From Amaurobius ferox (taxonomy: Eukaryota > Arthropoda > Arachnida > Araneae > Amaurobiidae): a stretch of DNA of 64,000 bases. Where the stretch lies: assembly GCA_951213105.1 (NCBI GenBank), contig OX578140.1:118341653-118405652 (forward strand). The letters are read 5' to 3'. Positions 56,258 through 63,409 of this stretch are shown piece by piece. The notes under the pieces were generated by a model, which did not search any database, was not told the origin of the DNA, and worked only from the letters and a program-made list of their open reading frames with translations. Every line of letters begins with the position of its first letter. Position 1 is the first letter of the stretch. Position numbers and translations under genes: made by a program.

Positions 56258-56806
56258 CATAATTTGTATTTGTAAAACAAATAGATGATAATGTAAAACG
56301 GTGATTGATGATGCAAAAAAAGTTAATAAAAAAGTTGGAATTTATGTACAAATAGGGTCAACAGTACAGTCAATCCTCCCATAATGCGATTAATTCATAC
56401 CGCGTTATATGAAAATCAGATTAATTCGCACCATGTTATATAGATACAAGAAACTCAATCAGTACAAAACAGAACAATTCGTACGGTACGAATTGTTGTA
56501 TTTAATTATAACACGGTACGAATTGTTCTGTTTTGTACTGATTCTGAGTTTCTTGTATCCATATAACATGGTGCGAATTAATCTGATTTGCACTAATCTG
56601 ATTTCCATATAACGCGGTATGAATTAATCGCATTATGGGAGGATTGACTGTATTGTTGACCCTATTTGTACATAAATTCTGACTTTTTTATTAACTTTTT
56701 TTGCATCATCAATCGCCGTTTTACAATATCATCAATCACCGTTTTACATTATCATCAATCACCGCTTTACATTATCATCAATCACCGTTTCACAAATACA
56801 AATTAA
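56258..56806. mobile_element. 550-bp palindrome: pogo-type MITE within a longer foldback
   Basis: The inner element 56367-56650 is flanked by TA (56365-56366, 56651-56652), with ends CAGTCAATCCTCCCATAATG and perfect inverted arms to the centre near 56500. Its flanks are also inverted: 'gatgatgcaaaaaaagttaa' through 'aatagggtcaacag' on the left and the complement on the right, reaching about 56258 and 56806. The outer arm holds one unit of 'atcatcaatcaccgttttac' type on the left and four on the right. The frames here (56409-56612, 56701-56898) are palindrome artefacts. Confidence 0.9.
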
Positions 56807-56874
56807 ATGTTACGTATAATTTAAATGTATATAATTCAAATATAATTAAAATGTTTTTCACGTACTGTACAGTG

Positions 56875-57257
56875 CAGCCAACAGCCCTACCGTGCTGATA
56901 ACACCGGTTCTCATTAGATCACCGAAGTCAAGCAGCATCGGGCGCGGTTAATACTTGGGTGGGTGACCACTTGGGAACACCGCGTGCTGTTGGCAGATTT
57001 CGGACGCGGTAGACCGGTGGTTTGCGCGCTGGATTTGCACGCTGCCACAACTGCCGCCGTGTTCATGCAGAGTACGATCACGTTAAATATGTGGGTCCGT
57101 AAGTCCTTCCGAGAGGTTGGTGGTAGGGGAAGGAGAGTACGATCTCTGTGGATGCCTCCCCCACTGGGTTCCGGTCTAAATTGGATGGCACTTCTCGGCC
57201 GTCCAAATAGTTACCTTACACCTTTCTGGTAGTTCGGACGGTCTGGGTCTTAAAACA
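56875..57257 (+). mobile_element. 5S-headed chimeric SINE with 15-bp TSD
   Basis: Perfect 15-bp duplications 'acgtactgtacagtg' at 56860-56874 and 57258-57272. In order: a nearly full 5S rRNA-like head (56877-56994); a remnant of a tRNA-type head ('gacgcggtagaccggtggtt') whose B-box half is missing; a body ('gtacgatcacgttaaat', 'ggtccgtaagtcctt', 'ggtggtaggggaaggag', 'actgggttccggtctaaatt', 'cgtccaaatagttacc'); and an A-rich tail. The body is shared with the tRNA-headed copies at 61719-61980 and 62011-62207. Confidence 0.95.
56877..56994 (+). ncRNA. 5S rRNA-like sequence (SINE head, not a genuine gene)
   Basis: About 118 bases: GCCAACAGCCCTACC start, 'ccggttctcattagatcacc', 'gaagtcaagcagcatcgggc', 'gcggttaatacttgggtggg', 'tgaccacttgggaacaccgc' and 'gtgctgttggc' end. 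The internal-control-region order of 5S genes is intact and the ends still pair. It lacks a T-run terminator and reads straight into the SINE body inside the target duplications, so it serves as a pol III promoter head. Confidence 0.9.
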
Positions 57258-57272
57258 ACGTACTGTACAGTG

Positions 57273-59002: not shown

Positions 59003-60714
59003 TCAAACTTTTTTTTGCATAGGGTCTGCATTTGATTTTACAATTTGGACGATTTTAACAAGGATAATTTTTATGTCGTTTATATTAACATAATTATTAA
59101 TTTCCTTAAAGAATTTTAGAAAATCAAGGAAGAGGTTTGCAGTTTGGTTAGTTTCTTCTATTTCTACTTGCGAGTGGACCACGTGCTCTGCGCAGCTTGG
59201 GTGCTGCGTCTCAGCACGTGGCATCGCCTCGTAGTTTGCATTATTTATGGGGGTTGGAGATTTTGGTAGCGGCGGGAAATTTTTCTTGTCGAGATTTAGA
59301 GGGACACTAACATTTTTAGTATGAGGTTTTTGAAGGCTGGATTTGGCTTCCTGGAACTTTTTACGGTTCCAGGAGTTTCTTGGGCAGTGCCGAAAGTAGG
59401 CTGGGTGAGCCCCGCCACAATCTGCACATTTAGCCGGGAGGTCTCTTGGCTTTACACATTCACGAGTTGGGTGGTGTTCCCCGCATTTTAAGCACCTAGA
59501 GGGGAGTGAACAGTTCTCCGAAGAGTGATTAAAATTTTGGCAATTATAACAGATTTTAAACCCATTTGATTTGCCTGCACAGCTACCCTCATGGAGAGTA
59601 CGGAGGTGAGTTTATAAATCCTCTCCCATTCCTCGGTCGGCTCTAGGCAGATCAAGAAAATGGGGAGGGGGGACCTATCCCTGCAACTTCTTAGCTGAGA
59701 AATTCTAACAATTTTGAATCATTCGTTAGTGATAGCCTGTTTAAGGGAATCAATTTCCGTGTTAGTTGGCAAGCCTATAATGACTATTTTTTGGGGACTG
59801 TCATTTTTTAGATTGATTGAGCTAAATGGAAATTTTGTTTGGGTTAGGTGAGTCTGAACACTCCTGTAGTCCTCAACGGACCCAGGAGTGAACCTAATCA
59901 CCCTTCCCATAAGCTGGCCCTCAATTTTATTGTCTAAGATTTTATTAAGTTCCTCTATGAGGGCTCCCCAATTACTTGTGGAGTCCACATAGAAGGAAGA
60001 TACTTTAATTTTAGGGGTGGGGAGGGTAACTTCCTCCATTACAGCGCCATCTACAGTTAAGTTTGAGAATCTATTTTCAGTAGGAATCTCCTGCGAGATT
60101 TGGGGAACTTGAGTGGATCTTTTTAACTTCTTAGCTTTTTGGATTTGGAACCCTGACATTTTTTCATGCATTTCTTGTGTATAGTACTGATAGAGTACTC
60201 CCTCATCAGTGACACCCTTTCTGACTTTGATACATTTAGCAACAGACTCGTATGAATCCCGCGTAACAAGAGTTTGACTATCGGGGGTCCTAAACAGCAA
60301 GTTAGAATAAAAAATTGTACCTTTTAGGACAAGCTCCAGTTGGTCTCTCCGTTCTTTTTCCATATTTTCGTCTTCCAGGTCCAATTCCATTTGGCCGATG
60401 AAGAAGTCGTAGAATCTGAGATGCTCATGTATCTCCAGCTCTGTTCCTTGATTCCAGTTAGTAGTTTTCTTCCGGTATTCGGCGGCAAGACTTGCACCTT
60501 TACTTGAGGTCTCGGCATGTTGTTCAGAGTTGCCAGCATATTGCGCCGGCTTCTCGGCACTTGTTTGGACTTGGTCCTCGGAATCTTGTAGGGTCCCATT
60601 CTCATAATCGTCCATTATCTCCTACCAGTCTGTTTTCTTCTTTTCCTTGGCTATAACAGTCAGTGCTTTTGCTTCCTTGGTGGCTATGGCACGTTGCTTT
60701 TCTCTCATAGACAT
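59003..60714 (-). pseudogene. Jockey-type LINE ORF1 (gag-like) relic
   Basis: A gag-like nucleic-acid-binding protein of a non-LTR retrotransposon, about 570 codons. From the ATG at 60714 it reads 'MSMREKQRAIATKEAKALTV', then a TAG at codon 31 (60624-60622), then an open stretch from 60615. That stretch has a Gln/Ser-rich linker and a region with 'FSNLTVDGAVMEE' and 'QKIVIIGLPTNTEIDSLKQA', ending at a TGA (59721-59719). The same frame resumes with 'FKIVRISQLRSCRD' and 'WERIYKLTSVLSMRV', a PRE_C2HC-type domain. After a frameshift near 59575 come three CCHC knuckles, 'CYNCQNFNHSSENC', 'CLKCGEHHPTREC' and 'CADCGGAHPAYFRHC', then a Pro/Ser-rich tail to 59003. No endonuclease or reverse transcriptase ORF follows, so the element is truncated as well as mutated. 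Confidence 0.9.
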
Positions 60715-61035
60715 TTCTGTTCAAATTCTTTTATACATATTTTGATTTTTCCTATTTTGCTTCGTTTTAAGCATAGTAGAAGGCACGAAGCAATTCCTTC
60801 CAGCAATTTTTCAGCAACACCATACATTTTAATAGGAAGAAATCTTGCCGCCTAATTGCCGCAATTCGTTCATACTCGGAAATAAAAATTGCTCAATTTC
60901 TGAGCGACCACCCAATCAGAGGACTATAAAATTGGACGTCACTACTCTCCGCCTTTCCTCTTCTCATTTGCATTCAAGATGGCGATGGCGACTGTAATGC
61001 AAACAAGTCGAAGCAGCTCAATTACATTAGAATTT

Positions 61036-61570
61036 GGAGATGGAAAAAATAAAAGAATTTCTACCAAATTACAGACACCTGTGGGATATAAAATATCCAA
61101 ATTATACTGAAATACACTCTAAAGAATGCTTCCTCAAATCGGCGGCACTAAACAAGGAGGACCTTTTAGAAAGGAGGGGATTACAGTATCATTGCCGTGC
61201 GGAATTGCTAAAGTCTGGAGATGTAAAAATAATAATAGAACTTTTACCAAATTACAGACACCTGTGGCATATAAAAGATTCAAATTATACGAAAAAAAAC
61301 CCCACTGAATAATGCTCCTTGGAATGAATTACGCTGTATTAGAAAGGAGGGGCGTTTTAGAAAGGCGGGGCCTAAAGTATCATTGCCGGGAGGAATTTCT
61401 AAAGTCTGGAGATGGAAAAATAATAATAGAGCTTTTAACAAATCACAGACACCTTTGGGATATAAAAGATTCAAATTATACGAAGAACACACCAAAGAAT
61501 GCTTTCTGAAATGAAATCGACGAGATTTGAGAGAAGGGATCTGTTAAAGACGAGGAGCCTAAAGTATGAT
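61036..61570 (+). repeat. Tandem array of 181-191-bp units
   Basis: Three units start at 'ggagatg' 61036, 61217 and 61408 (spacings 181 and 191), with a degenerate fourth to about 61600. Each contains 'aaattacagacacctgtggg' or a variant, 'atataaaagattcaaattat', 'aagaatgct', 'gaaaggaggg' and 'agtatcattgccg'. Short frames on both strands are array-derived. It lies upstream of the LINE ORF1 relic (which reads away on the minus strand), but a promoter role is not shown. Confidence 0.93.
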
Positions 61571-61639
61571 TGACAAACGGAATTGCCGAAGTTCCGCAAT
61601 AAAAATTACCCGTGTAATAACACCATTCCAGTCTGATAT

Positions 61640-61718
61640 TAGAAAACTAGCCGCCTTCGGCGACCAGCCTGTTCGCTACCCTTGAAAATTCTGAGAGTGG
61701 CAAACTCGCTGGCGCGAC
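61640..61718 (+). repeat. GC-rich dispersed repeat fragment
   Basis: 'ctagccgccttcggcgacca' followed by 'cctgttcgctacc' and 'ggcaaactcgctggcgcgac' abuts the SINE at 61719. It is GC-rich relative to its surroundings and probably a piece of another dispersed element. Confidence 0.4.
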
Positions 61719-61980
61719 CTACCAGAAAGGTGTAAGGTAACTATTTGGACGGCCAGGAAGTGCCACTCAATTTAGACCGGAACCCAGTGGGAGAGGCATC
61801 CACAGGGACCGTACCCTCCTTCCCCTACCACCAATCTCTCGGATGGACTTACGGACCAACATGTTTAACGTGATCGTACTCCGCGTGAACATGACGACAG
61901 TTTTGGCAGTGGCGGGAATCGAACCCGGACCTACCGAATGCAATTCCCGCACACTAACCACTGGGCTACCGCGCCCTCCG
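61719..61980 (-). mobile_element. tRNA-headed SINE, full head
   Basis: On the minus strand: 'agggcgcggtagcccagtgg' with an A box, then 'ttcggtaggtccgggttcga' with a B box ('gggttcgattcccgcc'), then the body shared with the 5S-headed copy at 56875, ending 'cacctttctggt'. No clear target duplication was found. The head matches the pattern of a tRNA-derived pol III promoter with the usual A-B spacing. Frames through it are not genes. Confidence 0.92.
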
Positions 61981-62010
61981 CGGCAATCTCCATAACTTTA
62001 TTTTTATTCA

Positions 62011-62207
62011 CCCTATTTAGACCGGAATCCAGTGGGGATGGCATCCACAGGGGCCGTACTTTTCTTCCCCTACCACCAACTTCTCGGAAGGACTTACGGA
62101 CCCACATGTTTAACGTGATCGTACTCCGCGTGAACACGGCGGCAGTTTTGGCAGTGGCGGGAATCGAACCTGGGCCTACCGAGTGCAATTCCCGCGCGCT
62201 AATTTAA
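62011..62207 (-). mobile_element. tRNA-headed SINE, truncated copy
   Basis: Same family and strand as 61719-61980, 31 bp apart. It keeps the B box ('aggttcgattcccgcc') and body down to 'cggtctaaatagggt', but lacks the A-box half of the head and the distal body. The two copies are about as diverged from each other as from the 5S-headed copy, so a recent tandem duplication is unlikely. Confidence 0.88.
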
Positions 62208-63327
62208 ATTTTATAATGACCATATGCTAAGTTCCGGGGGTGATGGGATCACGCCAGTCTAATTAATAAATGTTCCGGGGGTGATTGAATCACGCTTTTC
62301 CCGACCGTGCAGCTAACCCCTTTAAGCCCATGTTGGCAAGGGGCACGGTCTGGGTCGCGGAAGCTCTTAATTCTATTATCCTCATTCCATCGTTCCATCA
62401 TTTAAAATATCCATTTAAAAAATCTATCAATCCACCATCATTTAATCATTCAAATTTTATAATGACCATATGCTAAGCTCTTAATTCCATCATTTAAAAT
62501 ATCACTTAATTTTCTAACCCGATGCACGATCGTTAGCAAGAATTTTCAAACAAAAAAATAAACGCCTTTTCTCAACCAATTTACCATCTTCCGAAATTTC
62601 CATGGAATAAGTTCCGTGCTATACATCAAACATCCAAAATAGCGACGCGCTTCACAAAAGCATTCAAACAAAAATAAAACTAAAAAATATTCTTCTTTTT
62701 CTGGTAACCCGATACACGATCTCCAAGGAAACGGAGTGACGTCACCGGCTGCGCGCGCAGGGAAAGTGGGAGCTCTTCGGCGTGTAGTCGTCGGGAACAT
62801 TAGTTCATTGAAATTGGGATTGTGCGGCTATTTATAATTATTTCTTGACCAGATTGGGCTTGTAAGAAAGCCAGATATTTGAGCTTTCTAAAAATGTAAA
62901 TTATTAGTCGAAAATCTCGATACTTTTTCGGATGCGAGGATTTAAAAACGAAAGTTCGTTTTTTTGAGCCGAAAATGACTTTTGTTTTAAAATCTTTAAA
63001 AAATATTAGAATGAGTCCCTGAGATTTGAAATTGATATATTTTTACTCGCAATTGTTTGCTCTTTTCAGTCGGATGATATGTTTTTTTCTTCGACGTCTG
63101 GATGGTGGAGAATAAAGGGCAAAAAGGGAAAAAAACGTTCGAAATCGCATAAAGCATTAAATAACAAAAAAAATAATTCAAATTTTAAAAATCGGTTTTG
63201 ACGTGTCCTCTTCCCACCTCCGGGTCTCCGATTGCCAAATTTCGTAGCTCTCCGACGCGCGGTCGTTGAACCTATAGTGTATAAGACACACAGACACACA
63301 TACATTGTCTTTTATTATTTAAGATAA
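62208..63327 (+). repeat. Composite repeat sequence between SINEs and MITE end
   Basis: 62231-62296 holds two copies of 'gttccgggggtgat.g.atcacgc'; 62335-62360 has 'ggcacggtctgggtc', like the 5S-headed SINE's tail. 62740-62780 is GC-rich ('gcgcgcgcaggg'). The end at 63225-63327 ('gccaaatttcgtagctctcc', 'acacacagacacacatac', 'attgtcttttattatttaag') has the same layout as the distal end of the repeats at 1618-2297 and 22396-23330. No gene was supported; frames on the minus strand here are repeat readings. Confidence 0.5.
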
Positions 63328-63409
63328 GAGGAGTCGGTGTCGAGCAGCAGAAAAAAGAGACGTTGAAGTCAACAGTTTGAGTTACTGACTCCTCAACTCT
63401 GCTAGTATG

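What the first reader, a model, noticed from the sequence alone, without database searches (positions are those of the whole stretch)
56860..57272. SINE with a 5S rRNA head joined to a crippled tRNA head, next to tRNA-headed relatives
The element starts with an almost complete 5S sequence, then a tRNA-type head that keeps its A-box half but has lost the B-box half present in the related copies at 61719-61980 and 62011-62207. All three share one body. Together with perfect 15-bp target duplications, this suggests that a 5S promoter was added to a tRNA-type SINE and that the old promoter then decayed, or that heads are exchanged by template switching. 5S-headed (SINE3-type) and 5S-tRNA composite SINEs are known in vertebrates; a composite with a deleted B box and a co-resident tRNA-headed sister is worth describing.
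Basis: partly seen in the sequence, partly recalled or inferred. Interest (0 to 1): 0.82.

Follow-up and report, generated by a model that had tools for sequence, protein, structure and literature searches.

The report
Spider SINE with added 5S head
A small 'jumping' DNA element in a spider genome has taken on a 5S ribosomal RNA front end, lost half of its older tRNA-type switch, and then spread to many places; similar elements are known in moths and vertebrates, so this is a neat new example rather than a new kind.

Summary
Window 56860-57272 is a full-length SINE: a near-complete 5S rRNA (Rfam 103 bits), a 7-nt filler, the A-box half of a tRNA head, a body and a tail, within perfect 15-nt target duplications.

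It is not a one-off. The window's own genome (3.56 Gb, a spider) gave 40 other long 5S-headed matches at 92-95%. All 30 aligned copies, window included, share the junction and the B-box deletion, mostly with their own target duplications. True tRNA-headed sisters with nearly the same body and tail exist elsewhere.

The window's two 'sisters' are not independent SINE insertions but tandem units inside a larger Helentron/DINE-1-like repeat, about 61646-63328.

Three places keep the 5S 3' end and filler followed by an intact B box: one has a 5S-family-type body start, two are mosaics. This favours 'head added first, old promoter lost later'.

Precedents: moth HaSE3/HaSE1, AmnSINE1 (recalled). New member of a known kind. 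Copy number, LINE partner and true 5S gene remain unsettled; the genome server was mostly busy.

The parts
56860..56874 (+). 5' target-site duplication ACGTACTGTACAGTG
   Evidence: exact 15-mer, two + strand occurrences in the window
56875..56876 (+). two extra bases (CA) between the duplication and 5S +1
   Evidence: sequence; in 17 of 19 5S-headed loci with a duplication of 11 nt or more, GCCAA starts -1 to 3 nt from its end
56877..56994 (+). 5S rRNA-derived head, full length (Rfam hit 56877-56995), holding the region of the 5S internal promoter
   Evidence: RF00001, 103.3 bits; box positions recalled, not scored separately
56995..57001 (+). 7-nt filler (AGATTTC; majority ACATTTC in the 30 aligned loci) between 5S 3' end and tRNA-SINE 5' end
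   Evidence: alignment of 30 loci; coordinates
57002..57040 (+). 5' (A-box) half of the tRNA-type head; about 27 nt with the B box missing after 57040
   Evidence: blastn against the tRNA-headed copies; comparison of family consensuses by eye
57041..57196 (+). SINE body shared with the tRNA-headed family (3' limit approximate)
   Evidence: 90% identity to the window units; three consensus differences from the tRNA-headed family
57197..57257 (+). 3' tail (5' limit approximate), with CGGACGGTCTGGGTC at 57235-57249 and an A/C-rich end
57258..57272 (+). 3' target-site duplication
61646..63328 (-). larger dispersed repeat, Helentron/DINE-1-like in layout, holding the two tRNA-headed SINE-derived units (limits approximate)
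   Evidence: of 29 other loci, 22 match part of its 5' region (62798-63328) and 23 end at 61637-61652; end sequences. Class assigned from recalled features
61711..61980 (-). tRNA-headed SINE-derived unit 1 inside that repeat (A and B box kept)
62009..62207 (-). tRNA-headed SINE-derived unit 2, 5'-truncated (B box kept)

Best explanation
This is one copy of a dispersed 5S-headed (SINE3-type) SINE family in a spider. A tRNA-headed SINE gained a complete 5S rRNA in front of its 5' end, most likely when a reverse transcriptase finishing the SINE RNA jumped to the 3' end of a 5S rRNA molecule and added about 7 untemplated bases (inferred). The composite then had two Pol III promoters. A lineage that lost about 27 nt with the tRNA B box (shown by comparison) became the successful 5S-headed family, presumably transcribed from the 5S promoter alone (inferred), and was spread by the same LINE machinery as the tRNA-headed family through their common tail (common tail shown; LINE not identified).
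For: 40 other long 5S-headed matches at 92-95% in the window's genome. The same 5S/filler/A-box/deletion/body junction in 30 of 30 aligned loci, window included, and in 35 of 35 junctions found in held sequence by a pattern allowing up to 80 nt before the body, with some places held twice. Shared exact words of 9 nt or more between flanks in 24 of 28 5S-headed and 24 of 26 tRNA-headed loci, against 52 of 1060 mispaired controls; 11 nt or more in 19 of 28 and 21 of 26 against 7 of 1060 (6 of 60 loci dropped for an unrecognised tail). The tRNA-headed family begins at (G)GGGCGCGG after its target duplication, which is where the remnant begins in the 5S family. In 17 of 19 5S-headed loci with a duplication of 11 nt or more, the 5S start GCCAA lies -1 to 3 nt from its end, and the 5S part runs to the 5S 3' end. 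Body consensuses differ at 3 positions in about 205 columns, one of them polymorphic in the tRNA family. Three places with 5S 3' end, filler and intact B box in the whole genome by exact pattern, one with both 5S-family body marks, CACAACTG and TTCATGCGG. TTTT runs, which could stop Pol III, inside only 2 of 54 elements.
Against: No transcription data. The majority filler begins ACA, as do many target duplications of this family, so a genomic-neighbour origin is possible. The B-box composites might all be later recombinants; two of three look mosaic. In them only the last 7 nt of 5S plus the filler were seen, not the whole 5S head. The order of the two steps therefore rests largely on one diverged place, read over about 125 nt in all. 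All aligned copies were best hits to the query, so age and uniformity are biased. Junction patterns counted exact matches only.
Confidence: 0.66

Rival explanations
1. Genomic-neighbour origin: a tRNA-headed SINE inserted just downstream of a 5S gene or retrocopy; read-through from the 5S promoter gave the composite RNA, and the 7-nt filler is leftover flank.
For: The majority filler starts ACA, as many target duplications of this family do. Insertion next to an earlier copy at the same target is seen in several loci, e.g. L007, L071, L078, L086.
Against: A 5S gene normally ends in a T-run (recalled); the filler holds only TTT, and 7 nt is shorter than the usual 14-16 nt duplications. The join sits at the 5S RNA 3' end and the SINE RNA 5' end.
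Confidence: 0.2
2. Repeated head exchange by template switching: 5S-headed copies arise again and again from tRNA-headed RNAs rather than from one founder.
For: C19:48540850 has the 5S 3' end and filler followed by a head equal to the tRNA-family consensus and AAAACTG; C5:135386882 changes type near TTGCAC.
Against: All 35 junctions found in held sequence share one deletion and the 30 aligned loci share remnant-specific bases; 29 of 30 5S-headed copies carry the T in TTCATGCGG against 0 of 30 tRNA-headed ones, though tRNA-headed copies in L020 and L091 do carry it. The seven hits fit nested insertions: the one read further clearly is, the other six were judged from the first 80 letters shown.
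Confidence: 0.1
3. One-off chimera or assembly artefact.
For: None found.
Against: 41 long matches on many contigs, window included; target duplications that differ among loci.
Confidence: 0.01

Closest known systems
HaSE3 with HaSE1 (Helicoverpa armigera), PMC3272025
   Same: 5S-headed SINE sharing body and tail with a co-resident tRNA-headed SINE; its authors propose template switching to 5S rRNA (passages read)
   Different: In the passages read no deleted tRNA half is described behind the 5S head, and HaSE3 is said to be much less abundant than HaSE1.
PxSE4/PxSE5 (Plutella xylostella) and ObSE2, PMC8010984
   Same: 5S-headed moth SINEs; ObSE2 is a tRNA-derived SINE with high identity to PxSE4 (passages read)
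   Different: Moths; PxSE4 and PxSE5 differ from each other at the 3' end. Not aligned here.
AmnSINE1 / Deu-SINEs (vertebrates)
   Same: 5S rRNA followed by a tRNA-related part and a conserved body (composite recalled from Nishihara et al. 2006; its listing as a 5S-headed DeuSINE seen in PMC3747384, passages)
   Different: Vertebrate, CR1-type partner in that table; the Deu domain was not tested in this spider body.
Helentron / DINE-1-like (HINE) elements, for 61646-63328
   Same: 5' GTCT-type microsatellite, 3' hairpin then CTAGT, tandem units of varying number (class features recalled)
   Different: The tandem unit here is a tRNA-headed SINE; no autonomous partner was sought.

Membership tests
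SINE3 (5S-headed SINE) | 5S rRNA-derived head at the 5' end | tested here: met
   RF00001 full length, 103.3 bits in the window, 95.2 bits in L006; no other 5S-headed copy was run against Rfam
SINE3 (5S-headed SINE) | dispersed copies with target-site duplications | tested here: met
SINE3 (5S-headed SINE) | Pol III transcription from the 5S internal promoter | not testable with these tools
   no expression data
SINE3 (5S-headed SINE) | 3' tail shared with a partner LINE | not tested
   tail is shared with the tRNA-headed family; no LINE search was sent
tRNA-headed SINE (SINE2), sister family L061-L090 | tRNA head with A and B box | tested here: met
   B box GGTTCGATTCC in the consensus. Weak points: in one copy, L072, Rfam's tRNA model 1-71 aligned at 17.4 bits, below the gathering score of 29; ARAGORN found no tRNA in any of 10 loci tried
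tRNA-headed SINE (SINE2) | B box present in the window element 56860-57272 | tested here: not met
   about 27 nt absent
HaSE3 family proper | same body sequence as HaSE1/HaSE3 | not tested
   sequences not held
Deu-SINE (AmnSINE1) | Deu domain in the body | not tested
   sequence not held
Helentron/DINE-1-like (61646-63328) | characteristic ends and internal tandem block, dispersed copies | tested here: met
   the feature list itself is recalled and no library of such elements was searched
Helentron/DINE-1-like (61646-63328) | mobilised by a RepHel helicase | not tested
   no search for an autonomous partner

The most novel reading that the evidence does not exclude
A promoter takeover in a SINE caught in steps within one genome: tRNA-headed parents, rare dual-promoter composites (5S plus intact A and B box), and an abundant 5S-headed family that amplified after losing the B box, with occasional recombination between the two families.
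Probability: 0.42. Interest if true: 0.6.

Novelty: new member of a known kind. Interest (0 to 1): 0.42.

Why it matters
A 2020 paper lists 5S-headed SINEs from vertebrates and some insects (PMC7245038, passage). In my searches of the paper library I saw none for spiders, but these were mostly listings: 3 papers; 14 papers, one opened for passages; swamped by unrelated papers; 'SINE3' with 'spider': 0 papers. Here parents, possible intermediates and the deleted family sit in one genome, so the question of how a SINE changes its Pol III promoter could be tested by counting and dating copies of each type.

Tried and rejected
Rejected: 'single chimera'; 'the window's tRNA-headed copies are free SINEs'. 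I first read several of the seven hits (5S remnant plus tRNA head) as template-switch products and wrote so in a note. L091, the only one read beyond the 80 letters shown, is a nested insertion in a 5'-truncated 5S-SINE: the 16 nt held after the inserted tail continue the 5S-SINE, and the 5' join carries an inverted piece. The gap range also missed the spacing of an intact composite; one search repeats it with the right range.

Led nowhere: viral contigs hold no exact match to one 24-nt body word; a translated SINE frame gave 43 weak, unnamed protein hits of 96 candidates; paper search was swamped. An automatic count of loci with three or more copies of the target word gave 1 of 19 5S-headed and 5 of 21 tRNA-headed loci and missed several arrays visible by eye. 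Not answered despite many tries: the total count of 5S junctions; RF00001 over the genome (true 5S gene) was sent once, unanswered. No LINE-partner search was sent.

Full report
What is there. Window 56860-57272 is a complete SINE on the + strand: a 15-nt target duplication (56860-56874 and 57258-57272), two extra bases, a full-length 5S rRNA-like head (56877-56995, RF00001, 103.3 bits), a 7-nt filler, the first 39 nt of a tRNA-type head, a body, and a tail with CTGGGTC and an A/C-rich end. The tRNA B box is missing.

Host. The window lies in a 3.56-Gb assembly of 276 contigs. A prefoldin-subunit-6 exon at 11835-12263 matches spider proteins: named hits at 75-82% identity (Parasteatoda tepidariorum 79%), the best hits unnamed, up to 87%; 24 proteins reported of 35 candidates. 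The species is not known to me.

A real family. Searching the window's own genome with the 404-bp element gave 43 matches from 40 scored of 6058 first-look candidates: the window copy, 40 further long matches at 92-95%, and 2 short ones. The 6058 are unverified candidates and may include the tRNA-headed family; no copy number is claimed. In the alignment of the 30 loci cut out (the window copy is one of them), 30 of 30 show the same 5S 3' end, filler position, A-box remnant, deletion, body and tail. A pattern scan of held sequence, allowing up to 80 nt before the body anchor, found 35 such junctions, all with 26-27 nt there (some places are held in two loci). A variant filler, CATCTC, occurs in the flank of L003 and in L086 with the same deletion.

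Target duplications. With 6 of 60 loci dropped because the tail was not recognised, 24 of 28 5S-headed and 24 of 26 tRNA-headed loci share a word of at least 9 nt between flanks, against 52 of 1060 mispaired controls (11 nt or more: 19 of 28, 21 of 26, 7 of 1060). The words differ from locus to locus, so segmental duplication does not explain the copies. In 17 of 19 5S-headed loci with words of 11 nt or more, the 5S start lies -1 to 3 nt from the end of the word; in the other two it lies 4 and 8 nt away.

The sister family. Free tRNA-headed copies were found with a piece of L007 as query: 44 matches from 40 scored of 7867 candidates. Thirty were aligned. They begin (G)GGGCGCGGTAGCCC..., have the B box GGTTCGATTCC in their consensus, and share body and tail with the 5S family: three consensus differences in about 205 columns, one of them polymorphic in the tRNA family (14 A, 12 T); mean distance to own consensus 1.5% (5S) and 1.1% (tRNA) in the body, biased low because best hits were taken. 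Comparing the two consensuses by eye, the 5S family lacks about 27 nt, TCGGTAGG...CCAGCC. The parent may have been the form with GCTGCC after it, seen in 11 of 30 tRNA-headed loci (18 have A, 1 was not readable by the script). In the one copy tested, L072, Rfam's tRNA model aligns over its full length but at 17.4 bits against a gathering score of 29, and ARAGORN finds no tRNA in any of 10 loci tried, so the head is a degenerate tRNA.

The window's 'sisters'. The query 61711-61990 found copies that share far more than a SINE (57 matches from 40 scored of 5075 candidates). Of the 29 loci other than the window's own, 22 match part of the region 62798-63328 as well, and in 23 the similarity ends at 61637-61652; 7 and 6 loci respectively do not. 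The ends read ATCTATATAATAAAAGGCAATGTCTGTCTG... and ...GGTCGCCGAAGGCGGCTAGT, with a varying number of about 245-bp tRNA-SINE-derived units between. By recalled features this is a Helentron/DINE-1-like element whose tandem block is made of SINE copies.

Steps of origin. An exact pattern for 5S end + filler + 60-90 nt + B box gave 7 hits, backwards control 0. One was read further and is a tRNA-SINE nested in a 5'-truncated 5S-SINE, which resumes after the inserted tail over the 16 nt held (L091). The other six, seen only as their first 80 letters, fit nested insertions near the same point, but their far ends were not checked. With the correct gap of 32-60 nt there were 4 hits, backwards control 0: one is a deleted copy followed by a nested piece; three keep the 5S 3' end (TGTTGGC) and filler in front of an uninterrupted tRNA head with B box. 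Their 5S heads further upstream were not read. The next bases are 5S-family type in C15:57957515 (CACAACTG and TTCATGCGG), which also has a diverged head, as expected of an old undeleted composite. C19:48540850 has a head equal to the tRNA-family consensus and AAAACTG but TTCATGCGG; C5:135386882 has a 5S-type A half, then AAAACTG and TTCATGCGG. These two look like recombinants, although TTCATGCGG is also seen in tRNA-headed copies in L020 and L091.

Mechanism. Shown: one junction, one deletion, many copies, shared tail. Inferred: joining of 5S rRNA 3' end to SINE RNA 5' end during reverse transcription; transcription from the 5S promoter; mobilisation by a LINE through the tail. TTTT occurs inside only 2 of 54 elements, so a Pol III transcript could run through. 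The rival, insertion beside a 5S copy followed by read-through, remains possible because the majority filler begins ACA, like many target duplications.

Known relatives. HaSE3 and HaSE1 in Helicoverpa share body and tail under 5S and tRNA heads, and the authors propose template switching (PMC3272025, passages). PxSE4/5 and ObSE2 repeat the theme (PMC8010984, passages). A 2020 paper lists SINE3 from vertebrates and some insects (PMC7245038, passages). AmnSINE1 as a 5S plus tRNA composite is recalled; a review table lists it as a 5S-headed DeuSINE (PMC3747384, passages). A 2024 paper (PMC10886601, passages) adds lepidopteran families and has no occurrence of 'spider'. So the kind is known; the spider family, the retained tRNA half and the possible undeleted composites are what is new here as far as these searches go.

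Noticed in passing
window 61646-63328 (-): Dispersed Helentron/DINE-1-like repeat whose internal tandem block is built from tRNA-headed SINE units, with varying unit number among loci L031-L060.
   Followed up: partly
L007, L069, L071, L078, L081, L083, L086: Repeated SINE insertions at the same regenerated target site, giving several SINEs separated by copies of one target word; 5S- and tRNA-headed copies sit in one array in L007 and L086.
   Followed up: partly
L020 (minus strand): Tandem array of about 172-bp units made of SINE body plus tail: perhaps an incipient SINE-derived satellite.
   Followed up: no
L024:3020-3082, L016 near 970, L034 near 599, L027: Short pieces with a related but different tail (such as GTCCTCTGGACGAGTCGGACGGTCTGGGTCTTC), perhaps 5'-truncated copies of the partner LINE or of another SINE.
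   Followed up: no
L091: tRNA-SINE nested in a 5S-SINE with an inverted piece of the tRNA head (TAACCAATGGGC) at its 5' join, like a snap-back during second-strand synthesis.
   Followed up: no
window 59003-60621 (-): Two ORFs resembling a gag-like, zinc-knuckle protein of a LINE remnant (likeness recalled).
   Followed up: no
window 56705-56794 and 61028-61512: Tandem repeats of about 23 bp and of about 181-191 bp.
   Followed up: no
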